This document shows positions 10,760 to 63,200 of a stretch of 64,000 bases of DNA, one piece after another. The translations under genes and the position numbers were made by a program. The stretch's first letter is position 1. Every line of letters starts with the position of its first letter. The notes beneath the pieces are model-generated. The model saw only the letters and a program-made list of their open reading frames with translations. It was not told where the DNA came from and did no database searches. Origin of the DNA: Zygaena filipendulae (lineage: Eukaryota > Arthropoda > Insecta > Lepidoptera > Zygaenidae). The stretch lies in the NCBI GenBank assembly GCA_907165275.2, contig OU015655.1:9746501-9810500 (forward strand). The letters are read 5' to 3'.

Positions 10760-12720
10760 ATTAAAATTGCAATGACCGTACGGAATTCCTTTTTGTTTTA
10801 ATGAGTAATTTCATTTCTAAGATGATCGGATAGTATTACCTCCTGTTATTGTTCTGAGATTACCTCATAATATGCTTTATTAATATCTGGAAAAATATGA
10901 TATAATTTTTTTTTTTACACGATCTAGAAATTCCAATTCATTACGTAACGTTTTCATTTTCAATTTTTGTTAAATTAAATTAGGTATTATTTTTAATTCA
11001 ATTTTAATTTATATTAGAGAAAAACACAAAAGTCTCCATGAAAACCAAATTGTACATGAAATTTTTACAGCACTTTGTGAGTATTTTCTCTTAAAGCTCC
11101 ATTTCGTAACTTTTTTAAAGTTAATGTGAAGTCCCAAATAGAAATATTTTTAAATTGGTAGAATAAAAGTTTTTACTTTCGCAATTTCAACTAGGTACCA
11201 GTATTTCAACTACCCTTATTTAAAGAGGGCAATTAAAATGATTTATTATTATTTTCTTCTACAACACAGGAAGTAATGCTTTTTCTTGTGTCTTTAAATA
11301 ATATTTCTATAAAGATAATAATAAGGACTTATGATAGTGATCGAGTTTTTAGTAAGCGAGGTATGGGGTAGATATGCAAAATCTGAAGAATCTTCCGTGA
11401 CTAATTTGATTTTAAAATGTTTTCTTCAATATCATTGTTTACTAAAAATACCTAAGATACATAGTCAAAGACGCAAATAGTACATTGTTATCCTAGGGGT
11501 GAAAGTAACTAAATAAGTCTTTCCCCCGAGGATAACACTGTGCTTTTCATTACGAATGCAAGGAAAGTCAAAATAAAAACAAAAAATAGGAATTATCTAA
11601 AGAAAAAATGAGTGAAGATCGGAGTCGCTTGACACTTTCCCACCTATTTCTTTTTCTTTGGCCGGCTAGCTATTCAGCCAGTATTTTTTATTTACATTGT
11701 GGCGACCTAAAAAAAATATTATCTTTAATTATTAAGTATTAATTAAAGAAAATAAAAAAATATAAATAGGAATTAGCTTAAGAAAAAGTGAGTGAATTTT
11801 ATTTTAATTAATACCTACTTAAACTTTACGTTATTTCAATTTTACATCGCGCTGGCTGTATAGAAAGTTGAAACATGGTTCAATAGAAATGTGAAAATAG
11901 ACCTAGTTTATTTTTAATAATTTGACAGTTGTCAGTTGAAAGCGATTCTCCCTAGGGCTGAAAAGTGTTACTTTCAACCCGCTTCTCAGGCAACTTCAGA
12001 CCTACTTTCCGAGTATGAGTAATGAAAAAAATATTTGTGTACCTAACTGTGAATCTAGGCACAACATAACAACTTTTTACATCAATGTTTTTTTTAAATG
12101 TACCTACGTATATTTTTTTTCGAAACATGAGTTTTTAATTTATGATGGTCATTGTTTTTGGAATTGGAATTGCAAAAAAGTACGTATTTGTAAAGAGTAA
12201 AGGTTTCAAAATAATAAAATAAATAGTTACTTAAGACTTACCCAAATACAGGCGATCCATGAATGTGTCTAATTAGAGGTCGTTTTTAACGTGGAATAAT
12301 TTATCGAAATATGCATTTTATTGAGGGTAGTTCGAAATAAAGACCACATTGATGTTTTTTGGGTAAATTACACCCAAATTACACTCCTTACGGGGAAGAC
12401 AAAGAAATCTTAGTCCATACGGCCAAGTCGTAGGATTTCTTTTTATTGTTATACATTGAAATGAACTTGTAAAATGCTTTTCCATCAAATTTCATTGATT
12501 TCGATGCTTTACTGGAACTTTTTGGAGTAATTTCTTATTTTTGCTTTTGATCAATTTTTTTTTATAAAACTAATATTTTCGCCATGATAATTTCGAAACT
12601 ACTTAAGGCAAAAATTTTGGCCCTATTTATGTTCTATAAACTTTTTAGTAATATTATTATTTTATTTAGGGGGATTTGGGGGTTTTTAATTAACCTTTAG
12701 GGGTAAATATTTTCAAGAGT
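10760..12720. other. Intergenic AT-rich stretch
   Basis: Between the Unr promoter side and a LINE fragment. Short frames only; one at 12015-12200 has a CVPNC start but no continuing family match. No convincing gene. Confidence 0.4.
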
Positions 12721-12798
12721 TGGTAACACTGGCACAAATCAAAGATGGCGGTTTAGTCATCCGCGTAGTGATTACCTTCTCTCCACAAATTAACTAGT

Positions 12799-13304
12799 TA
12801 ATGGCTTGGATTCCGGGGCACGCTGGCATTGCTGGCAATGAGCGTGTGGACTTGGTTGCCAAGGACGCCATTGTCTGCGGTGACAGGGTGCCGTTCCGAT
12901 GTTATTGCCATGATCTTATATCTCTCCCGAAACAGTCCCTATATAAAACTTGGTCTGCCCTCTGGGATAAATCTAAAAAATCAAAGGGTGCTTGGTTTGG
13001 GGTAATCCAACCAAGTATCCCTAATAAACCCTGGTTTTCCCGATGGAATTTCAACAAAAAAATCTGCTCCTCGATTATTCGTATGAGGTTAGGTCACTGT
13101 TGCATCCCAGTTCATCTTCACAAAATTCATTGCCTTAATTCATCTTTATGTGAATGTGGTCTCTCCGAAAGAGACCTTAATCACATCATCTTTTCATGTC
13201 CTCGTTTCAATCATAATTATTTATTTTCTGACCTTGTATTCTGTAAAATTCCGCTCCCCACATCCATCATCACCCTTCTTCACTCTTTAGACTTCCAAGT
13301 CTAA
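12799..13304 (+). pseudogene. LINE RNase H / C-terminal fragment (5'-truncated)
   Basis: An open frame of 167 codons starts MAWIPGHAGIAGNERVDLVA, the last RNase H motif of jockey/I-type non-LTR retrotransposon polyproteins. It continues through a Cys/His cluster (LGHCCIPVHLHKI, LCECG, DLNHIIFSCPRF) typical of the tail after RNase H. Reverse transcriptase is absent. The 5' break falls directly after the recurrent sequence CACAAATTAACTAG at 12784-12797. The 3' UTR (13305-13440) becomes the outer part of the left arm of the long inverted repeat. Confidence 0.8.
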
Positions 13305-14466: not shown

Positions 14467-14502
14467 CTTTAAACCACAAATTAACTAGACTTATCTTTAA
14501 AC
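14467..14502. mobile_element. 20-bp micro-insertion with perfect 8-bp duplication (filled site)
   Basis: CTTTAAAC at 14467-14474 and 14495-14502 flanks CACAAATTAACTAGACTTAT. The homologous position in the other inverted-repeat arm (13822-13829, GTTTAAAG, reverse strand) has a single CTTTAAAC and no insert. Confidence 0.85.
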
Positions 14503-15018: not shown

Positions 15019-15878
15019 CTATACTTTAACGATATTAAATTATGACTTATTATTCGTTCATATTCTCTTATTTATTTAAGTATAAGTATATAATTTCTGT
15101 CTTGTCCTATTGTACATAGTTCATCCCATTTCATCACTATTCTTATTACAACGAACGCCCAAAATTTCGCTCGTTCATTTCTTTTTGCAAATTAAATTAA
15201 CGCGACACTGGCACAATGTCATTAATGACAATTGCCATAAAAAAAAAAAAAATCTCTCTGGTCATCCGTCCACGGCACGTAGTGATTATATGATCTTTGG
15301 TCCACGGGTTATTCATTTTTTTTCATGTCGATAAAAAATGGTTAAAAATGGATTTTGTTCTGTAAGGTGCTGTATAATAGGACAATAATATTCATAGTGA
15401 AGGTTTTTTATGTGCTCAAGAAGATAAATGACATTTCGAGCTTATTTCTTCGATTTCCTCCAAGAGCTCCGAGAAAGTTCTTGCAAGTTATAGCAACCGT
15501 GGCTTGCAATTTCAAACCGTACAACGAAGCATTTCAATAGAAAATAATATTGATCTAATTAATTTTTCTTGAAACGGGCTAAATGCATTAAGCAGAAGTC
15601 CATAAAAAAGAAAGAAAATACATAATAAATAAAATAAATAAATAAATACATAAATAGGTATATTAAATGCCTACTAATATTATAAATGTTTGGGAGAGGA
15701 GCGGTCTGCAGCGTCGGTCGTGGTGCCTCGCTGTTCCTCTCCCGTCTTTGGAAGGGTTGCAGGATGTTGTGTAGAAACTCAAAGAATCGGTTGACATTCT
15801 TGTTAAACACTATATTCTCCAGAAGTCTTAGAAATTATATTAAAGTAACTTTTTGTACAATCCTAGGTATCGACTCAG
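15019..15878. other. Intergenic stretch, no gene seen
   Basis: Apart from the micro-insertion at 15268 and A/T-rich runs, it shows only short frames of no recognisable family. AATAAATA runs lie near 15635. Confidence 0.35.
15268..15307. mobile_element. 24-bp micro-insertion with perfect 8-bp duplication
   Basis: GTCCACGG at 15268-15275 and 15300-15307 flanks a 24-bp insert that starts CACGTAGTGATTA and ends GATCTTTG. Confidence 0.8.
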
Positions 15879-17704: not shown

Positions 17705-20700
17705 TTAATACAATGTCATAATATCCTTCAGCCAATCTTTGTAACTTTCAATCTTTAGTATTATTAATGGAATTCCTTTCCCTTGTTTGTCACCCCATGA
17801 AAAAAATCCAATTATTTTTGAATTCACGACAAGCATAGCTCCGTGTTCTGTAATTAAAACAAAAAAAATCAATTAATAAAAAAAATAAGACAGGACAGGA
17901 CCTATAGAGGTTTGATAAAATCCCCTCCTCGAGAATAATTAATCTAATGTACCTAGGTACCTACCTAGATAAGTAAGTAGTCAGAGGAGTCAACCACGAA
18001 AATATGTAAACACTTTCGTCGGTCGTTCTAATAACAGTTGGTATAGTGACATTCATGAGATTCAACGATTAGTGACTTCCAAAAGTGATTACATATTTCT
18101 GATGATTACTTACTGTACATGAACTACTCTGTGTAACTTGAGTAACTATTTAACCATATTCTAAGCTTTAACGGCCGCACTCAGAGTCGACTTTAATGAT
18201 TACTTAGTTAAGTATAGATTTTTAAAACAAAACTGCCGCAATCAGAGACGTTCATTAAATTAATGTTAATTGGCATTTAATGAGATGTAACTTAATTAGT
18301 TAAATGTCAATTAACATTAATTTATTAAACTTGTCTGATTGCGGCAATTTTGTTTTAAAAATCTATACTTAACTAAGTAATCATTAAAGTTGACTCTGAG
18401 TGCGGCGGTAAGTATTTAATAAATCAAAATTTTGCCTACCTACTTACGCTTACTTTACGAAATAGCAATACCTATGTGGTAGCACAATATGTTAACCAAC
18501 CCAAATAATTGCTGGATACTTTTTTGACAAAAACACACATTTCATGGTTTCTTAGTTCCAGAATAGGAGACACGTATTCCAAACATTTCTCCATAGTTAT
18601 AACATTTACATTGGTGAAACTCATCACATTACGATCATCTAAAAACAAGAAGGTAAGTTAATCCTTGCCCATAACGCGCGTCCTAAAAACTCAATTCCGA
18701 CCGCTTCAGATGCCAAAATATTAGATATTAATATTCTGCTTACCATAACACACATTGTAAATTTTTTTTAAATAGTGAAACTTCTTTGATCGAAGGGGAA
18801 AAACTAGGTGATTACGTTAATTTCATGTTTTCATGATTTGTCTTGATCCCGCAATTAGGCAGGTACCTACTGCGATCTATCAGTACCTACCTATAGCGGG
18901 ACTAACCGCCGCACTCTAGAGTAGTTTTAATGATTACTTAATTAAGTATACATTTTTAAAACAAAACTGCCGCAATCAGACAAGTTTAATAAATTTATGT
19001 TAATTGGCATTTAACTAATTAAGTTGCATCTCGTTAAATGCCAATTAACATTAATTTACTGAATGTCTGTGTTTGCGGCAGTTTTGTTTTAAAAATCTAT
19101 ACTTAATTAAGTAATCATTAAAGTCAACTCTGAGTGCGGCCGTAAGACTGCTTGCAGTGCTCGCACAAACATACCTACTAAGTTCTAAATTCACCGCTGA
19201 TTTTAAAGTTTTTTGTACAACTATAAAAAATATTTTTTTACAACAATATTCGTTGCTAGGGCCATGAGTCCAATGACGCATTTACCTGATAAATAAATTC
19301 CAATAAACTGGTACTGGAAAGGTACCTACCCATAGGTAGTAAATGTATAATGACAATAGCTAGTAGGTAAATTACCAAATACCACAAGTATATCAGGCAG
19401 AGGTACCTTCTTACCTGGATTATTGTAATCAAAAATACGACTCCATCCAACAACAGTCATGTCCTTTGAAAACCTATGCAAAAAATCATCAGCAACAGCA
19501 AACATACTGGAAACTGTAATTTTTTTTCTATTATTATGTATCTATCTCCGTTATTTCTAAATTAGTTAATTAATAATCATTATATCTCAAAACCTATTAT
19601 AGCTACTATAGCTATTATTCGTGTTTTTTTTTAATAATTACAATGAAGAAATAAAATACATACCGTCGTAAATATACGTTGATACAGTTAATGTATCGTG
19701 CTCGAACAATCCAATGTTGTTGTTCAGTTGGTCCCTGTCGAAATGCGGATGAACGATGTTGCGTTTTATGCCTGTTTCTGGTTTAAAACAATTTAATAAT
19801 GATTTTTAGAAAAAAAAAATAGAGGATTGTAACCAGTTATTCTTCTGAGATTGTAACGATTGTAAGCGTGACCAGTAGGTACCTCAGAAGTATTCTTCTG
19901 AGGTAGGTACCTTTTTTCCAGTGATTAAATCCCATGTCAATAATGACAGCTATTGTGTGTGGTCGACAATCGTATCATCGGTCGTCTTCTATGCGTTCCT
20001 ATACATTTGAACTGATTATGATGAAACTTTGTACGTGTACGTATAATTCATGCCGGAAGGGTTAGATATTATGAACAGTCTGCACAAAATTTACTATTCA
20101 TTGCGATTCGCGACGAGAAAAAAAAAACTGTAGTTGGGCGTACAGTGGTCACCTATAATATACATCTATACATATAAAATGCTTTGTCCTGAATGACTGA
20201 TGAATCATCGCACAGCCTAAACCGCTGATCGTAGAGACCTAAAACTTGGAGGGTGTGTTCGTTTATGACGTAGGCATCCGATAAGAAAAGATTTTTGAAA
20301 ATTCAACCCCTAAGGGGATGAAAAGGGGTTGCAAAGTTTGTATGGAACAATTCTTCGGGAACTACGAAATTATTGCGGGTGAAACCGCGCGGGACAGCTA
20401 GTTAACAATTAATTAACAATATACATATAAAATGCTTTGTCCTGAATGACTGATGGATCATCGCACAGCCTAAACCGCTGATCGTAGAGACCTGGAACTT
20501 GGAGTGTGTTCGTTGTATGACGTAGGCATCCGATAAAAAGGCTCAGACGAAATAAAAAAAAAAGGATTTTTGAAAATTCAACCCTTAAGGGGATGAAAAG
20601 GGGTTGCAGTTTGTATGGAACAATTCTTCGGGAACTTCGAAACTATCGTGGGTGAAACCGCGCGGGACAGCTAGTTAACAATAAATAGATAGATACCCAC

Positions 20701-37574: not shown

Positions 37575-37602
37575 CAGTGCCTAGTTAGTAGTGCCCAGAG
37601 AG
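37575..37602. repeat. Micro-insertion core without visible target duplication
   Basis: CAGAGAGAAGGTAATCACTA followed by CGTGG, the same core as at 45194, but flanks do not match. Confidence 0.5.
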
Positions 37603-37717
37603 AAGGTAATCACTACGTGGTATGTCTAAAGACAGATTTTGAGGGGTCGTTAGAGATCCACCAATCACAGAAGAGGTCGCACAGCCACAGACAAAAGCCA
37701 CATATATTAGTGTTGTC

Positions 37718-38209: not shown

Positions 38210-38245
38210 GCCCAAGGTAGTGATTACCTTCTCTGTGGCCCAAGG
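38210..38245. mobile_element. 20-bp micro-insertion with perfect 8-bp duplication
   Basis: GCCCAAGG at 38210-38217 and 38238-38245 flanks TAGTGATTACCTTCTCTGTG. The duplication could be read as 11 bp (plus TAG) because the insert also starts TAG. Confidence 0.8.
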
Positions 38246-42636: not shown

Positions 42637-42676
42637 GCTAGCTCCACGTAGTGATTACCTTCTCTCTGGCTAGCTC
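42637..42676. mobile_element. 24-bp micro-insertion with perfect 8-bp duplication
   Basis: GCTAGCTC at 42637-42644 and 42669-42676 flanks a 24-bp insert starting CACGTAGTGATTA and ending TTCTCTCTG. Confidence 0.85.
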
Positions 42677-43039: not shown

Positions 43040-43168
43040 GGGCCGTACCAAGGAAGTTATAAGTACTACGTACAAGTAGTTGTACAAGTACACGTAGTAC
43101 TTATAACTTCCTTGTCTTGTCTACGTACAAGTACACGTAGTACTTATAACTTCCTTGGGCCGTACCAA
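43040..43168. repeat. Palindromic insert between 12-bp direct repeats
   Basis: GGGCCGTACCAA at 43040-43051 and 43157-43168 flanks a 105-bp block made of a palindrome (GGAAGTTATAAGTACTACGT / complement) plus a repeat of its right half. The outer flanks GAAGAATAGG and CCTATTCTTC are themselves inverted. Confidence 0.65.
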
Positions 43169-43243
43169 CTTAGTGATTACCTTGAACGTAGTGATTAAGC
43201 CTATTCTTCTGAGCTTATGCCCTATGCCGATGCCTACTGCCAA

Positions 43244-43290
43244 TAAACGTAGTGATTACCTTCTCTCTGACCATAGTGATTACCTTCTCT
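43244..43290. repeat. Two micro-insertion cores side by side
   Basis: CGTAGTGATTACCTTCTCTC followed by TG, four bases (ACCA), then TAGTGATTACCTTCTCTCTG, which abuts the TIR of the next element. Partial cores also occur at 43170-43198. Confidence 0.6.
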
Positions 43291-43291
43291 C

Positions 43292-43771
43292 TGGTGTGCG
43301 TTCCGTGGGTTTGGGTGCGTTGTTTGGTTAAAATTTCACTCGTTTGAGTTGCAACCAAGCCACAGAACGATCGAGTTGTTTTTATAACCTTAAAATATTT
43401 GAAATTTCAGGCGCCATTTGTTTTCTCTCAACTCACATTGCAAATAAAACTGTTTTACATCCAATTATAAAGTTTTTGTGACTACGACACCTCCCCTTTA
43501 TTCGTAAGAACTCCGATTGATTTCTTTTTCGACGAATCCGGTTTTTGGCGCAATCTTTGACACTTCTTAAACAATACATAGCTGTCAGAGTGAAAATTAA
43601 CCTGCTTCGGAGATGGTTGTTTGGTTGCTGCACTCTGAGCCACGGAACGGGTGAAACTACGCTCTGACAGTTGTCAGAGTAAAATTTCACCAAGCCACAG
43701 AACGGGTTCAGCTTCAGAGCGCGCTCGAGCGCGTTCGAGTGCATTCGTGCGAAGCCACGGAACGCACACCT
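43292..43771. mobile_element. TIR element, ~480 bp
   Basis: GTGTGCGTTCCGTGG at the left and CCACGGAACGCACAC at the right are perfect inverted repeats. Internal GCCAC(A/G)GAACG blocks recur. No target duplication is seen, since the left flank is another repeat. Confidence 0.7.
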
Positions 43772-43825
43772 GGCTATAACTACATTAATGTTGTTAGAGA
43801 GGGAACCAGGAATTCACAACACGAT

Positions 43826-44905
43826 AATGTACGACACTGGAATGTACAGCACTGGAATGCGCGACACTGGATTGTACGACACCGGAATGTACAGCACCGG
43901 AATTGGTGACACCGCTCCTATTGGTCGATGAAATCACGCCTCCTTTCTTTGTGCTCGTTTACGTTACTTACCTAAATACTGGGTCAAGTTATTGTCAAAT
44001 ACGGCACAAATATATTTTATGTTAGATTTTTTGGTGATGATTATTAGGTTTCATGTTAGTGTTTATGCCCATTACGTTATTATGTTACAGTCTACAGGCA
44101 GGATAATCAAACAACGGACCACTCTATATATTTTACTGTATAGACTTAGAGTACAATACACTAAATCTGGTCCCTTAGTTTACACCTTATAATTATTATT
44201 TCCACGAGCTATGTGCCCTATACAGATTGTACAGATTATAAAAGTTACGAAAAGAAAGGAACCAAAACTGTATTAACTGGCGAACGGGAAGCGACTGGCG
44301 AGCGGTTAGCTTCGCCTGATTTACGTCACCTTTCCTATACCTATCCTACAGTAGGTACTAGTGTGGCGATGATGCCACTATAAGCTATTTATTGAAATAA
44401 GTAAAAAGTAATGAGAACATTACTATCAAGGTCACATCATGAACAGATTTCAAAGTAGTATACCCGACATTCTTTATTAGGTTAGGTTCTTACTGATGAC
44501 CAGGTCTCGCGAGCCGAGCGAGCGTAGCGAGCGTGCCGCGGTAGCGGCCGGCGATGCGCTAAAGACAAAATAAGGTGACATTTATTCGATTAATTCTTAG
44601 GTGTGACCACGAAGTTTCGATATATTATGCAAAAAAAAGAATATAACAAGTTGTAACAATTCATTAAAGTGAAAAATAATAATTACGTTACTAAATATTA
44701 CACTTGGACATGTTATTTGAATTTCCATCAGATTTTGAGACAGTAACTACTAACTACCTACTACCTGCATTGTATTGAATACTACTAAACGGAGCACGAA
44801 GTCGGCTAGGCCATGAAATCCGGTGTCGCCAATTCCGGTGCTGTACATTCCGGTGTCGTACAATCTCGTGTCGTGCATTCCGGTGTCGCCTTTTCCGGTG
44901 CTGTA
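43826..44905. mobile_element. ~1.1-kb element with TIRs made of ~14-bp tandem units
   Basis: The left end at 43826-43914 has six units of the type GTACGACACCGGAAT / GTACAGCACCGGAAT; the right end at 44819-44905 has the same in inverse. The order of unit variants is the same in both ends. The interior has short frames only. Confidence 0.6.
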
Positions 44906-45185: not shown

Positions 45186-45226
45186 CTCATAGCCAGAGAG
45201 AAGGTAATCACTACGTTTCTCATAGC
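45186..45226. mobile_element. 25-bp micro-insertion with perfect 8-bp duplication, upstream of the Tudor gene
   Basis: CTCATAGC at 45186-45193 and 45219-45226 flanks an insert that starts CAGAGAGAAGGTAATCACTA and ends CGTTT, the reverse orientation of the copies at 42645 and 15276. Confidence 0.85.
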
Positions 45227-45284: not shown

Positions 45285-46445
45285 ATGTCTATGTCGAATA
45301 AATCCGTAAAAAAAATCACGTTACTTAACTTTGAAGTAGGATCGTGGTATTATGTGGATGTTGTGCACATCATAGACCCTGGTAACTTTTTCGTGCTTCC
45401 AGTTTCTTATCGTGATCACATGCCTTGGCTTCGACAGTTTAAAAACCATTGTACTGTGCAGATAGAATTGGGTAAGATGGTTATTTTCCATTCAAAAACC
45501 TTACACATGTATGCAAGAGGACAAATATTGTCCTTTAATAACCATGGCTCAGAAATGAAAGATTGTCATGTGTACGCATGTGACTATGGCATATATGAAA
45601 ATGTACCTCTGTCTGAGATGCACGAGCCTTACCATGACACAAACATACCACCATTAGCTGTTAACTGTAAATTAGCAGATTGCAAACCTATAAATGGTGG
45701 CAAATTTGATAAGAATTCGATCGACGCTATGAAACATTTTGTTGGCAATGAGCAGGCCAGAATGTTAATAAGAGGCAAAGAATCAAATAAGTTTATTGTA
45801 GAGTTATTTAACTCGTGTCCTGATGATATTACATTAATGATGGCATATACTGGATATTGTTTATTGGGATGGAAAACTAGTGGTGTCAACAAATTAAATG
45901 CTGTGGTTGCTTCAGAAATTCTTACCTTCAAATATATGGAAGTGAAAGAGGGGGAGGTCCTTCAAGTAAGAGTTCAGTCTGGTAAAACACTGGATGATTT
46001 CTATGTTGCCCAAGTTGATGAATTTGAAGATTATTTGAAGAAGAAAGATGATTACACTAATTGTGCTAAAGGTCTTAATTCATTGGTTGCAACTGATCTT
46101 ACAAAAGACTTACCAGTTTTTGTTTGTGACAATAAACCTTTTGAATATGAAAGAGCAAAAATTTTAGATATAATTGAACCTGACAGGGTTGTTGTACAAC
46201 TAATGGACTGGGGAACAATTAAGAATGTGAATATTAATAGATTGAAGAAAATTCCACAATTTCATCTTGAAAACCCTGCTATGGCTATTCACTGTACAGC
46301 TGATAACAGCCAAGTGTGGGATAATGGCAGACACAATTTTCTGTACACAGGATTTGAATTTCTGGTGAAAATAAGAAATATAAGTGACAGCTTCTTAAAG
46401 CCTCATGTTGTTGATATTATCAGATTAACACCCATTAGTAACTAA
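45285..46445 (+). CDS. Intronless double-Tudor-domain protein
   Basis: One uninterrupted frame of 386 residues (MSMSNKSVKKITLLNFEVG and on) ends at TAA, with AATAAA 22 bases later. Two Tudor cores are visible. The first (about residues 60-120) has YARGQIL, then HVYACDYGIYENVPLSEM. The second (about 275-345) has FEYERAKILDIIE, then VVVQLMDWGTIKNVNINRL and KIPQFHLENPAMAIHC. The D-Y/W-G turn and the preceding beta strand are those of Tudor domains that bind methyl-arginine tails, typically of PIWI proteins in germ granules. No RRM, MYND, LOTUS or KH module is present, so it cannot be assigned to Vreteno, Tejas or Papi by domain content. Lack of introns suggests either a retrocopy that kept its frame or a compact native gene. 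A 25-bp micro-insertion sits about 65 bases upstream of the ATG. A piRNA-pathway role is inference. Confidence 0.88.
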   Translation: MSMSNKSVKKITLLNFEVGSWYYVDVVHIIDPGNFFVLPVSYRDHMPWLRQFKNHCTVQIELGKMVIFHSKTLHMYARGQILSFNNHGSEMKDCHVYACDYGIYENVPLSEMHEPYHDTNIPPLAVNCKLADCKPINGGKFDKNSIDAMKHFVGNEQARMLIRGKESNKFIVELFNSCPDDITLMMAYTGYCLLGWKTSGVNKLNAVVASEILTFKYMEVKEGEVLQVRVQSGKTLDDFYVAQVDEFEDYLKKKDDYTNCAKGLNSLVATDLTKDLPVFVCDNKPFEYERAKILDIIEPDRVVVQLMDWGTIKNVNINRLKKIPQFHLENPAMAIHCTADNSQVWDNGRHNFLYTGFEFLVKIRNISDSFLKPHVVDIIRLTPISN

Positions 46446-51200: not shown

Positions 51201-54200
51201 AGGAGGTATTATAAATACGAATATGAGTTTGTTTGTTACGCTTTCGGGTCTTAACTACTCGATCGATCTTCAGAAATTTTGCTTACACGTTGTCAGGGGT
51301 ACAGAGAAGAAGATAGGGTACTTTCACTCGGAATTCCCGAGGAACTCCGTAAATAACGCGGGTTAAACCTCGGGAAACAGTTCGTCCTTGATAAAATGAA
51401 CTATCCAACACAAAAACTAAAAGAACTATCCAAACTAAATGAACCAGAGAGAAGGTAATCACTTGAAATGAACTATTCAACACAAAATCAGAATATAAAA
51501 ATGAACAATTTGAAATTTATAAAAAGAATAACATTAGAAAATATTTTTTTTTTAATAAAAAGTAATATATGTTAATGAGGCGGGATAATATCACAACGAG
51601 TGGCATATCTACGGCCGCCTCGTTACAGTTTTTGAGTTTATCGCGGTCAGACAGACAGACACGACGGAGGATTGTTTTATAATATGTAAGGATTCATCGA
51701 GGAAGGCCGTAGGCAAATATAACATCACGCTACGAGTTACGACCAGTAGGAGCGGAAAATGTAGCAAATACGGGAAAAAATATTCCTATTGAGAGTTTCC
51801 ATTGCTTAGGTACGCTGCGTAAACGGTTGGATGTGGAATATTTTATTTTATTTATTTCAACATTAACAGGTATTTAACATTGATAGGACAATACACAATT
51901 ACAGTTTGACGTGCACTTAAACTAATTAAATACCCTTAAACAATGCTGATCCATAAGGCAAATTTATGAGACGTTGAGAGAGAGAAGATTAAAAGAGAAA
52001 AAATACAGGTTGAAGGTAGTTTACAATTTTGAAAGTGAAGAGCGAAAAGCGGTAAATGTGTGAAATAAATCTATATTAGATGAAGTTTTGGCACTAATGT
52101 CACTATATAATTGGCACATACGAGTTACAGGGTTGTTGCGCTGCCTCAAGGTATTACAAGTTGGGATGTGAAAGGTAAGATATTTCCTGTTTTGTCTGTA
52201 AATTTTTTTCGGGACGTTAATGAATATAGATGAGAGAACTGATGTGTCAAGAGGGTTGTGGATGATTTTGTAGAGGGTGGTATTTAGTACTTAGATTATT
52301 TTCTCAAATTGACGCAGGTGAAACCACGGGGCACAGCTAGTTTCAATATAAATTGTCATTCGTTGTTTCTGGATTAATCGATGATTAGTAGTATTATTTG
52401 TATTGGTTTTGTATATATATAATACTTATATTTGGACATAGATAAGCAATAGTGTGTTAACCCACACTGGAGAAATTTTGAGTAAATCGTGTTTTAAAAG
52501 TAGGAGCGCCATTTTGTGTCAACATTTTTATGTTCAATATTTAGTTACATATTTAAGCAATCTAATAAGGTAAACACATAATTAAAAAACGCTTCCTAAC
52601 TCTCAATAAATGGTTCTGAACCAATAACTTAATTTTGTTGGTTAACATGTTATTGGTTATCTACGTCCATTTATTATGTGGAATTAGTGTAGGTAATGTT
52701 ACCGGTTCTGTGTCATGCCACTAAACTATCCCCTAGCCAAAAGGTTGACTGGTAGAGAATGCCTTAGGCATTAGTCCGCCTTTTGTACGTAAATGTGCAA
52801 TAAAGATCTTTAAATAAATAAATTAACCTAGTAATTTTCGTCTCGATAATTACGAACCTTTATGTGTCTATCAATTAGCCAATTTAGCTCAATGTCGTCG
52901 TCGTCTTCTCCAAAAGGATTTATTAGAACTTCAGCTACCTTCAACCAGCCCACATAGAAGCAAAACTGAAATTAAAAAAAAAAAATCATAAAAATTGGAA
53001 CTTTACATAAAAATTTTATGAAAAGTGTGGATAACTTAGGTACAAACATTGGGAGTTGATATAAAATTTGCAAAAACAGATCGATAAACCTGCTTTATTA
53101 CCTAATCGATCGCTCGAGTCCAGAATATTACTTAATGTAAGTCCTGTCATAAAAATCTATACCTAAACAGCACTATAATATAAGGATATCTGACACTGCC
53201 TGTGTAGTTATTGTATTTATTTATAGTTACAGTATTTATTTATTACTAGCTGTGCCCCGCGGTTTCACCCGGATGAAAGGTTTTTATACAACAACTTTTT
53301 TTCCCGACATCCGATTTGAATGAAACAAAGCCTATATGTAGCTCCAGGCTAAGCTTAATTTACCTGTGAAAACCGCATGACGATCGGTTCAGTAGATGCG
53401 GAGATTATCGCGAACAGACAGACAGAAAAGAATTTTAAAAACTTTTTTTGGCTTGGTTACTCTTCTTTTATCACCCCTCTCAATTTTAAGTAAAAATATT
53501 CAATGTACAGAATCGCGGGTTCTACTCTTTTATTATAGTATAGATATTGGTGTTATTATATTTTGTCAATAAATTATTATAATATGTATCTATTTATGTA
53601 GTTAGGTGTGTACTTAATATTATTATTTTTCGTTATATTATTTTTGTATATCGTATAAATATCGAAATGAGGCACAGCAGATCAGCCTGTTCTAATCTTT
53701 TTCCTATTGCGGGCAGCTGGAAGAAATTCCACATGAAATAAGCATGACCCTTGTAGGCACATGATTAGACTTTTATACCTGTTTCCTTTTTATGTTGTCT
53801 TTGTGTGCATTAATTGTTAAATAAAAAAATAAACGGCAGGAGATCTCAAATTGTTCTCATTTGATCATTCCGCCATTTTTATTCTGAGTACGATTAATTA
53901 ACCTAATAACTCCTACGAACCTGTAATGCTGTAAACAGTGGAAAATATACGTCGGGCTCATACTTTGACGTACTGCCAGGAGCTGGCGGTACGAGCTGCC
54001 GCCCCATCAGCGCTGCCACAAAGTATGTGTACAGCGCCAACGTCACCACCTGGAATAGACATACAATACAAATATCTATATCTGGCAATTGGCATCACAA
54101 TATCCCATAACATTAAATGATAAGAATTTTTACAATAAAAAAACCGACCAAGTGCGAGTCGGACTCGCGCACGAAGGGTTTCGTACCATTATCTATAAAA

Positions 54201-60200: not shown

Positions 60201-63200
60201 TTCCCGCGAGTATTCCGCGGGTAGAACCGCGCGGGTCAGCTAGTCTAATAGTATTTTATTAATTTACGAAATAAAAACCAGTCATAGTTTAAAAATATTT
60301 ACCTACATCTATTGAAATTCGTATGAAAACTATAGCCCCTGATGATATTTGAATGGATGTCACTTCTATTATACCTATACTTCTCAATGAATTTTGAATG
60401 CATAAGAAACTGACGTTAAGTATGATTAGTTTAGGCACCTACATACATAATATTAAGTAAGTCCATGTTTATTATGAACAATTTTTACGTAGGTATATTA
60501 TAGTTTGCTTATCAATCCGTGAGATCCATGAAGGAATTATTACCTTCATGGTGAGATCATATAACATCGCAACATTGTTTTTATATGACCATTCTCATTA
60601 AAACTTATGTAGGTAAATTCTAAATGTGACTGACTACAATATGGAAATATAATATCAAATGAAAACGGACTGTTGATTTAAATGATGACAGACCGATTAT
60701 TCCAGCTGCTTCTTCGAAATTTAACTGAGATTCTCACATAACAGAGTCGTTTAAAAGTAAAGCAAAAAGCTAGTGGGGTGTTTGAAAGTGCGCCGGTATC
60801 ACTGTCGCGCCCATAAATAATACACTTTATATGACAACCCCTCAGATAAACCATGGTTACTTTTATTATATCTTAACTAGTTTTACTCGCGTTTATTGGA
60901 ATTCCCACGGGAACTCCTGGAAGCTGACGTCTCCTAGTCCTAATTTTTAACGAATTTTAGCTTCATAAGCAGTTGCGAGATTTCGTGTTGAGTCACTGAG
61001 TTAGTGACCTTTCTCTTAAAACCTATAGAAACAGATACATAATGACAGTGGGATACTTCAGAAAAAAAAATGCTTTTAGGAATAATATCTGGGCGACCGA
61101 CCTTCGCTCGTAACGTCATCTGTTGTTAAGTAGAAAAGCAGTACTAAACACTCATTTTTCATTGCCTGAAAACACGGATAAAACGTTTTCTAAAAATGAA
61201 ACCTAGCTACGTAGATCGATTAATCGCTCTCGGAACCCCCTGCATACTAAATTTCATCAAAATCGTTGGAGCCGTTTCCGAGAATCAGATTATATAGGTA
61301 TAGTATATACAAAAATTGCTCGTTTAAAGACAATAGATTGACATGTGTTTTACTGACCTGTGTATAAACTAGAGGTACACAAACGGTGTCGTAGCCTATC
61401 AGGGCGCCAAGTCTTCTCCTGATATCTGACAGCTCCACTAGCAACGTCTGAACGATGTGATCGCTGGTGATCAGTCCTTCCTTCCGCGCTCTGTTAATGA
61501 TATTAGTGGCCCACACCAAAGGCATCCAATACTTCGACATGGGACTCTTACCATCCATTTTCTCGAATACTTTTCGTTCGCTCTCTAGCATCAAGCCTGC
61601 AATTAAAAATACAAAAGTACTTTTAGTGAATGTGGATATAGAACAGAATACTCTGAACGTTACACAACTGCAACTTTTCAATTCACCGTGGCAACTGGCA
61701 ATAGTTAATACGTAGCTTAGGTAGATACGGAGGTATATCTGTATTGAAACAATTTTATCGTTTTTACCTAAATATATAATATGCTCTTGTAGTGTTACAA
61801 AATGATGTTTTATATTATGACTAGCTGTCCCCCGCGATTTCATCCGCGGAAATTTCGGAGTTCCCGCGGAGGTTGCGGGAAAAAAGTACTCTATGTCCTT
61901 CTTTGTACCCCGACAGTAGTTTGTGTCGGAGTTCCCGCGGGAATTTCGGGATTAAATAGTTTTAATCCGGAATTATTGCGGGTGAAACCGCGGTGAAATT
62001 CCGGAGTTCCCGCGAGAATTCCGGGATAAAAACTATCCTATCTTTTAAGTTGGACTATATTATAAATGGCTACAAAATTTTATCAAAATCTGTTCAATAG
62101 TTTCGGAGTCCATCGCGGACAAACAACGTGACACGTGATTTATATATATTGAGATTAAGAAGATAAGATATAATTCAGGAGCACTGCCATCATCTCTTTC
62201 GGTGGCATATAAACTTAAACAGAAATTTCATCTGTTTAAATTTTGACTTTAAAATGGTTTTAAGTAAAATGGTAAAAATTTCCATTAATGGTTTTAAATA
62301 AGACTTTTAGAGATGGTGGTAGACGGCCAGGTGGTGAGGATACCTACTTAAAACCGTTTTAAAGTCAAGATTTAAACAGATGAAATTTCTGTTTAAGTTT
62401 ATATGCCACTAAAAGATGTCCGAGTTCCCTAGTACGAGTAGTACGTCATATCAACTACTATTTTTGACTTTTATTATATACTAGCTGTGCCCCGCGGTTT
62501 CACTCGCGCGAAAAGTTTTTATACTACAACTTTTTTTCTCGTGATCCGATTTCAATGAAACAAAGCCTATATGTAGCTCCAGGCTAAGCTTAATCTAGCT
62601 GTGAAAACAGATTCGGAGATTATCCCGAACAGACAGAACTCTACTGAACGGATTGTCATGCGGTAGACAGAAAATATTAAAAAAAAACCTTTTTTTGTGG
62701 TTGATTAGTGGTTACTCTTCGTTTATCGTCCCCTGTCGGTTTTTGTTAAAAATATTCAATGTACAGAATCGCGGATTCTACTCTTTTATTATAGTATAGA
62801 TCTAACAAAAAACCGATTTTCAAAATTCTCTCACTAAAATTATACATAATAGTAATACATAATAAATATTATGTAGGTCTATGCTATACTAGCTATCGCC
62901 ACGGCTTTCCATGGGGCAATAATAATAATAATAGCCCGCAGCGTTTGTTCTGGCCACGCTGAGGAGTCATCCTACGCCGTCTTTTCCCTCGTGAAAAGAC
63001 GGGCAGTAGTGAGTTTCAAAAATAATAATAATAATCCACTTCATAACACACGGATCTACTTGATCCCACACTAAGCTATGATCTGGTGTGTGTGTTTGTA
63101 GGTATTCGCGAATTATGCATATTATATAAGTAGTGTATAAATTGAATGTAGGTACGCGGTCAAGGAGCGATAGATGAAGACGAGTGTGAATTCTCACCAG

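What the first reader, a model, noticed from the sequence alone, without database searches (positions are those of the whole stretch)
42637..42676. A family of 20-25 bp insertions each flanked by a perfect 8-bp target duplication
Six sites show a very short insert between identical 8-mers: 14467-14502 (CTTTAAAC), 15268-15307 (GTCCACGG), 38210-38245 (GCCCAAGG), 42637-42676 (GCTAGCTC), 45186-45226 (CTCATAGC), 51437-51473 (AAATGAAC). Five inserts share a TAGTGATTA core, four of them extended to TAGTGATTACCTTCTCT, in either orientation. One end is rather constant (CAGAGAG, CACAGAG or CAAAG on one strand) while the other varies by up to five bases (ACTACGTG, ACTA, ACTTG, ACTACGTTT). 8-bp duplications fit hAT or P-type cut-and-paste, and CAGAG fits a hAT terminus, but the inserts are shorter than one usual TIR plus subterminal region and lack a matching second TIR. 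They may be solo ends, one-ended insertion products, or a minimal mobile unit moved by a hAT-like transposase. I know of no named element of this size.
Basis: partly seen in the sequence, partly recalled or inferred. Interest (0 to 1): 0.9.

Follow-up and report, generated by a model that had tools for sequence, protein, structure and literature searches.

The report
Transposon excision scars, not tiny transposons
A genome that looks like a moth's or butterfly's carries thousands of copies of a short scrap, often lying between two copies of the same 8 letters; they are best read as scars left when larger jumping genes were cut out, so they would record past jumps rather than being a new, ultra-short jumping gene.

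Summary
The six exact 8-bp repeats are real. The window lies in a 366 Mb genome, probably lepidopteran. The 17-mer core occurs 2558 times there; read backwards, 0 times. Of 99 copies examined (window + 80 stretches), 8 begin a longer element and 91 are solo. In 51 of the 91 an exact 8-bp repeat follows within 3 bases; 0.05 expected with repeats permuted. A parent is a 1348-bp element without an intact reading frame, with its own 8-bp duplication. Two sister families share the block CACTACGTTTTA.

Solo copies keep 19-27 nt of one parental end (two read 28 and 30); 22 add TG, the parent's last two bases. Three copies that keep 27 nt have the right repeat shortened at the joint (0.18 expected): support for end joining, but thin. 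Other families leave palindromic remnants, one with 17-nt arms. Drosophila P excision junctions are built alike (PMC2895639 Table 1, Rad51-deficient flies).

Best reading: excision scars of a long-stagger, P-like transposon. The superfamily is unproven: genome searches for transposases did not complete.

The parts
42637..42676 (-). Excision scar, 24 bp (left end 22 nt + TG) between GCTAGCTC repeats
45186..45226 (+). Excision scar, 25 bp (..ACTACGTTT) between CTCATAGC repeats; ends 59 bases before the ATG of a Tudor-domain ORF
51437..51473 (+). Excision scar, 21 bp (left end 19 nt + TG) between AAATGAAC repeats
38210..38245 (-). Excision scar, 20 bp between GCCCAAGG repeats
15268..15307 (-). 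Scar of sister family II (CAAAGATCATATAATCACTACG + TG) between GTCCACGG repeats
   Evidence: longer copies of this end in L075, L083, L086, L090 and L091
14467..14502 (+). Scar-like insert of a third end family (CACAAATTAACTAGACTTAT) between CTTTAAAC repeats
37596..37619 (+). Copy of the 24-mer without an 8-bp repeat
12762..12785 (-). Damaged copy without an 8-bp repeat, next to a CACAAATTAACTAG copy
43167..43293 (-). Cluster of four core copies (two in tandem, 24-bp spacing); no 8-bp repeat found for the tandem pair
43041..43165 (.). 109-bp element with 8-bp duplication GGCCGTAC; its terminal repeat CAAGGAAGTTATAAGTACTACGTG matches the 24-mer at 15 of 24 positions
60519..60558 (.). 24-bp palindromic insert CATGAAGG..CCTTCATG between GTGAGATC repeats; possible two-armed scar
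19875..19910 (.). 20-bp palindromic insert CTCAGAAG..CTTCTGAG between GTAGGTAC repeats; possible two-armed scar
19826..19857 (.). 16-bp insert CAGTTATTCTTCTGAG between ATTGTAAC repeats
10835..10866 (.). 16-bp insert CTGTTATTGTTCTGAG between ATTACCTC repeats, similar end to 19826

Best explanation
The short inserts are excision scars. Larger cut-and-paste elements insert with an 8-bp target duplication. When one leaves, the two strands at its left end are cut far apart, so up to about 27 nt of that end stay on the donor flank; the right flank keeps at most the last two bases, TG. End joining then gives: 8-bp repeat, 19-27 nt of left end, with or without TG, 8-bp repeat. Shown: the exact repeats, the parent elements, the pile-up at 27 nt with almost nothing beyond, the TG. 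Weakly shown: repeats shortened at the joint. Inferred: that a transposase makes the inner cut; that the mechanism is P-like (P leaves 17-nt tails at both ends); that the two ends are cut differently.
For: Parent: L011 holds a 1348-bp element beginning CAGAGAGAAGGTAATCACTACGTTTTAAGAG and ending ..TTAGACTG between TACAAGCC repeats. The two edges of a second copy, between ATCACTAC repeats, are in L039 and L081; its middle was not fetched. Sister families I and II end CACTGAGCAAATAATCACTACGTTTTA and CAAAGATCATATAATCACTACGTTTTA. Of 91 solo copies 18 keep exactly 27 nt, one 28 and one 30 (its repeat begins AGA, which mimics the element); the 8 full copies run on. Solo copies with 26-30 nt kept: 22; right repeat 7, 6 and 5 bases long directly at the joint in one each (L037, L067, L012), 0.18 expected together. 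TG class: 22 of 91, defined by an exact repeat. Other families give palindromic inserts between exact 8-bp repeats: L028:7339 (36 bp, 17-nt arms), L061:90 (15-nt arms), L010:3399, L019:2623, window 60519 and 19875. PMC2895639 Table 1: Drosophila P excision in Rad51 (spn-A) mutants gives 8-bp repeat, pieces of the 17-nt tails, 8-bp repeat, one-sided cases included. The commonest base at each position of the 51 repeats reads G T C A T A A C, nearly palindromic.
Against: No transposase was found. Right-end scars seem to be missing: the parent's right end has no window match with fewer than 3 mismatches, the left end has 8 (6 exact); a symmetric P-like cut should leave both. In 24 of 91 solo copies no trace of the repeat was found. 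Shortened repeats are few: of 8 copies with 4-7 bases left, 3 are clean (one of them, L037, could be a base change), 2 fit one base change of a full repeat (L028, L050), 1 lies two bases off (L010), and 2 rest mostly on the element's own letters (L046, L099); at 4 bases there is no excess (2 seen, 2.07 expected). The TG class with an intact repeat could also be a 24-bp element that moves. The P junctions of Table 1 come from Rad51-deficient flies; in wild type most products involve repair synthesis. THAP-like fragments score nothing in Pfam or PDB. Strains with the element still in place were not available.
Confidence: 0.55

Rival explanations
1. A minimal mobile unit: a 24-bp internal-deletion derivative (22 nt of left end + TG) is itself recognised and inserted by a transposase with an 8-bp stagger.
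For: 24 bp is the commonest length (15 of 37 exact cases) and ..ACTACG+TG the commonest joint (12 of 37); termini are CA..TG; repeats are exact in the 22 TG-class copies, though that class was defined by the exact repeat; clean shortened repeats are few.
Against: Many different joints occur, implying independent events. The unit lacks a second matching end. Three copies have a repeat shortened at the joint.
Confidence: 0.18
2. Abortive gap repair: after clean excision, repair copies a little of one end from the sister chromatid and is then joined.
For: It gives the same repeat / end piece / repeat architecture; incomplete repair synthesis followed by end joining is the commonest product in wild-type Drosophila after P excision (PMC2895639, passages).
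Against: It predicts a broad range of retained lengths. Of 91 solo copies 18 stop at exactly 27 nt and only two read longer (28, 30), while the 8 full copies continue.
Confidence: 0.12
3. A hAT-type transposase that holds the left end specially: the bound left end is protected and stays behind, or is inserted, as a piece of up to 27 nt.
For: CAGAG start (recalled). In Hermes the left end is bound by several BED domains and the right end by none, and positions 11-27 of the left end are the BED-binding stretch studied (PMC10368747, passages): a parallel to a 27-nt limit on the left only. Some hobo episomes lack one or both terminal repeats (PMC2803484, passage).
Against: hAT puts hairpins on the donor flanks. 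13 of 51 repeats fit nTnnnnAn, no more than the single-position frequencies predict (about 12). No hAT gene could be searched for.
Confidence: 0.08
4. One-ended or aborted integration: only the left end joins the target and the body is then removed.
For: In the window only left ends of this family are seen.
Against: An exact 8-bp duplication needs two staggered joins; shortened repeats are not expected.
Confidence: 0.05

Closest known systems
P-element excision junctions in Drosophila (PMC2895639 Table 1; PMC7776569; passages seen)
   Same: 8-bp duplication on both sides of short pieces of the element's ends; CA..TG termini; shortened and one-sided junctions occur.
   Different: Here one end keeps up to about 27 nt and the other at most 2, against 17-nt tails at both ends; the core is present 2558 times in one genome. 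Table 1 is from Rad51-deficient flies.
hAT elements hobo/Hermes (PMC2803484, PMC10368747; passages seen)
   Same: 8-bp duplication; a CAGAG start (recalled); left and right ends handled differently in Hermes.
   Different: hAT excision puts hairpins on the flanks; target fit to nTnnnnAn is no better than single-position frequencies predict (13 of 51).
P-derived MITEs in Anopheles (PMC1562414; passages seen)
   Same: Nonautonomous elements with P ends and exact 8-bp duplications.
   Different: Those keep two terminal repeats and an internal stretch (the members named in the passages carry numbers from 205 to 675, which I take as lengths in bp).

Membership tests
P superfamily | 8-bp target duplication | tested here: met
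   51 of 91 solo copies and the parent in L011
P superfamily | transposase with a THAP domain and P catalytic core | tested here: inconclusive
   one copy of family II (L091) and one of family III (L011) share a 31-residue segment (18 of 31 identical) that resembles a THAP domain by recall only; Pfam and PDB give nothing; genome searches for PF21787 and PF05485 did not complete
P superfamily | terminal inverted repeats | tested here: not met
   left CAGAGAGAAGG and right CAGTCTAACGC of the parent share only the first three bases (read)
P superfamily | long staggered cut leaving 17-nt tails of both ends | tested here: inconclusive
   pieces up to 27 nt of one end only in this family; 17-nt arms at both ends in one other insert, L028:7339, whose own parent was not sought
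hAT superfamily | 8-bp duplication fitting nTnnnnAn | tested here: inconclusive
   13 of 51, about what the single-position frequencies predict
hAT superfamily | hAT transposase (PF05699) | not tested
   search did not complete
hAT superfamily | hairpin-type footprint without element ends | tested here: inconclusive
   the short inserts keep 19-27 nt of the end, which fails the test if they are footprints at all

The most novel reading that the evidence does not exclude
A cut-and-paste transposon lineage with strongly unequal end cleavage: about 27 nt stagger at the left end and about 0-2 nt at the right. Every jump stamps a readable scar, so the genome holds a fossil record of thousands of excisions that can be counted and dated separately from the insertions.
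Probability: 0.31. Interest if true: 0.72.

Novelty: new variant of a known kind. Interest (0 to 1): 0.55.

Why it matters
Excisions mostly leave little trace that can be assigned to a family. Scars that name the family that left would allow excisions to be counted against insertions, and end-joining habits to be read over evolutionary time. They would also explain a class of short 'unknown' repeats and warn against reading such repeats as ultra-short transposons.

Tried and rejected
Chance repeats: rejected. Tandem-repeat origin: the cluster at 43167-43293 is real, but the other window copies are single. Exact TAGTGATTACCTTCTCTSTG in the viral contigs and in the bacterial and archaeal genomes: 0 matches. 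A transposase in the window: Pfam on 10 chosen ORFs of 27 listed gave hits for 4 (RNase H below its cut-off, CCCH zinc finger, Tudor, Bestrophin), no transposase. The parent's protein fragment: no candidate in the protein database. Literal 14-mers in papers: 0. The other literature searches listed no paper that I recognised as describing these scars, judged from titles, abstract starts and passages of nine papers. A first assignment to hAT, then to P, stays open. The control (13 of 525 shifted anchors with an exact repeat), probably raised by tandem copies, was replaced by the permutation control.

Full report
Observation. The six exact 8-bp repeats and their 20-25 bp inserts are in the window as described, with two overcounts about the core: TAGTGATTA is in four of six, the 17-mer in three of six. 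The window holds 8 copies of this end family, 4 with and 4 without an exact repeat, and four further short inserts between exact 8-bp repeats. Among exact 8-mer pairs up to 3 kb apart with CA..TG inserts, two have clearly matching inverted ends: a 109-bp element at 43041-43165 and the 24-bp palindrome at 60519-60558.

Genome. The window lies in a 365.9 Mb assembly. A Tudor-domain protein in it has its named hits in moths and butterflies, at 37-41% identity. The 17-mer occurs 1301 + 1257 times, backwards 0 times. ATCACTACGTTTTA occurs 920 + 895 times, backwards 4.

Sample. The search listed the first 100 places, all on one contig. I fetched 20 stretches of about 8 kb and 60 short ones around them in order; the last 9 places were left out. 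A further 20 stretches lie around ATCACTACGTTTTA places that lack the 17-mer, and four longer ones run into sister elements. The count uses the window and the first 80 stretches: 99 core copies, none dropped at edges. Eight run into the longer element and 91 are solo. Retained length of the 91: 19 (1), 20 (11), 21 (10), 22 (8), 23 (24), 24 (7), 25 (8), 26 (2), 27 (18), 28 (1), 30 (1). The 23 class is mostly 22 nt followed by TG. The 30 case has a repeat beginning AGA, which mimics the element. Because the sample was anchored on an exact core, diverged copies are under-represented.

Repeats. Longest suffix of the left 8-mer at, or within 3 bases of, the end of the retained stretch, 91 solo copies: 8 bases 51, 7 bases 2, 6 bases 2, 5 bases 2, 4 bases 2, 3 bases 3, 2 bases 5, none 24. 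Expected with repeats permuted: 0.05, 0.04, 0.17, 0.75, 2.07, 5.67, 18.21, 64.04. For the 22 copies that keep 26-30 nt the series is 9, 1, 1, 1, 2, 1, 3, 4. A repeat shortened exactly at the joint is what end joining after excision gives; an integrase makes a full duplication. Looked at one by one, L012, L037 and L067 are clean (L037 could be a base change), L028 and L050 fit one base change of a full repeat, L010 lies two bases off, and L046 and L099 rest mostly on the element's own letters. This support is real but thin.

Parent. In L011 the same end starts a 1348-bp element with TACAAGCC on both sides and right end ..GTTGCGTTAGACTG. L039 and L081 hold the two edges of a second one, inserted at ATCACTAC in another copy's left end; its middle was not fetched. 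Sister families I (213 bp in L089 if the first of two GTTCAAAC is taken) and II (about 1.4 kb in L090) have different outer ends but the same inner block CACTACGTTTTA. The 15268 insert is family II. One copy each of II and III share a short protein segment (18 of 31 identical) that a DNA comparison did not show. It looks like part of a THAP domain, by recall; Pfam and PDB do not confirm it.

Other families. CTCAGAAGAATA ends give two-armed inserts (29 bp in L010, 33 bp in L019, 20 bp at 19875), and CACAAATTAACTAG ends give one-armed ones (20 bp at 14467, 21 bp in L027, 32 bp in L025). Many other copies of both ends in the fetched stretches show no 8-bp repeat. L028:7339 holds a 36-bp palindrome with 17-nt arms between ACTGACAC repeats.

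Mechanism. In P transposition the 5' cut lies 17 bp inside the end, leaving 17-nt 3' extensions (PMC7776569, passage). Table 1 of PMC2895639 (passage) lists Drosophila junctions, from Rad51-deficient flies, built as repeat, pieces of the tails, repeat, some one-sided. The inserts here have that build, with a limit near 27 nt on the left and TG on the right. The asymmetry is the unusual part: the window has 8 matches with fewer than 3 mismatches to the left end (6 exact) and none to the right end. Hermes, a hAT element, also treats its two ends differently and binds positions 11-27 of its left end (PMC10368747, passages), so a hAT-type version is kept as a rival.

Verdict. Excision scars of long-stagger elements: 0.55. 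P membership is open, because terminal inverted repeats beyond three bases are absent in the parent and no transposase was found. hAT membership is open too, but its excision chemistry fits less well.

Noticed in passing
45186-45226 and 45285-46445: One scar ends 59 bases before the ATG of an open Tudor-domain ORF (386 aa) whose named relatives are lepidopteran.
   Followed up: partly
L039, L043, L057, L064, L081, L082: The site ATCACTAC inside the elements' own left end seems to be a repeated insertion target, giving nested and head-to-tail copies.
   Followed up: partly
43293-43770: Inverted repeat GGTGTGCGTTCCGTGGGTT / AAGCCACGGAACGCACACC, 440 bp apart, starting at the edge of a core copy; no target duplication noticed by eye.
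   Followed up: no
12798-13301: Piece of a retroelement-like RNase H reading frame (Pfam match below its cut-off) close to two end-family copies.
   Followed up: no
43809-43898: 15-bp tandem repeat (GGAATGTACGACACT type).
   Followed up: no
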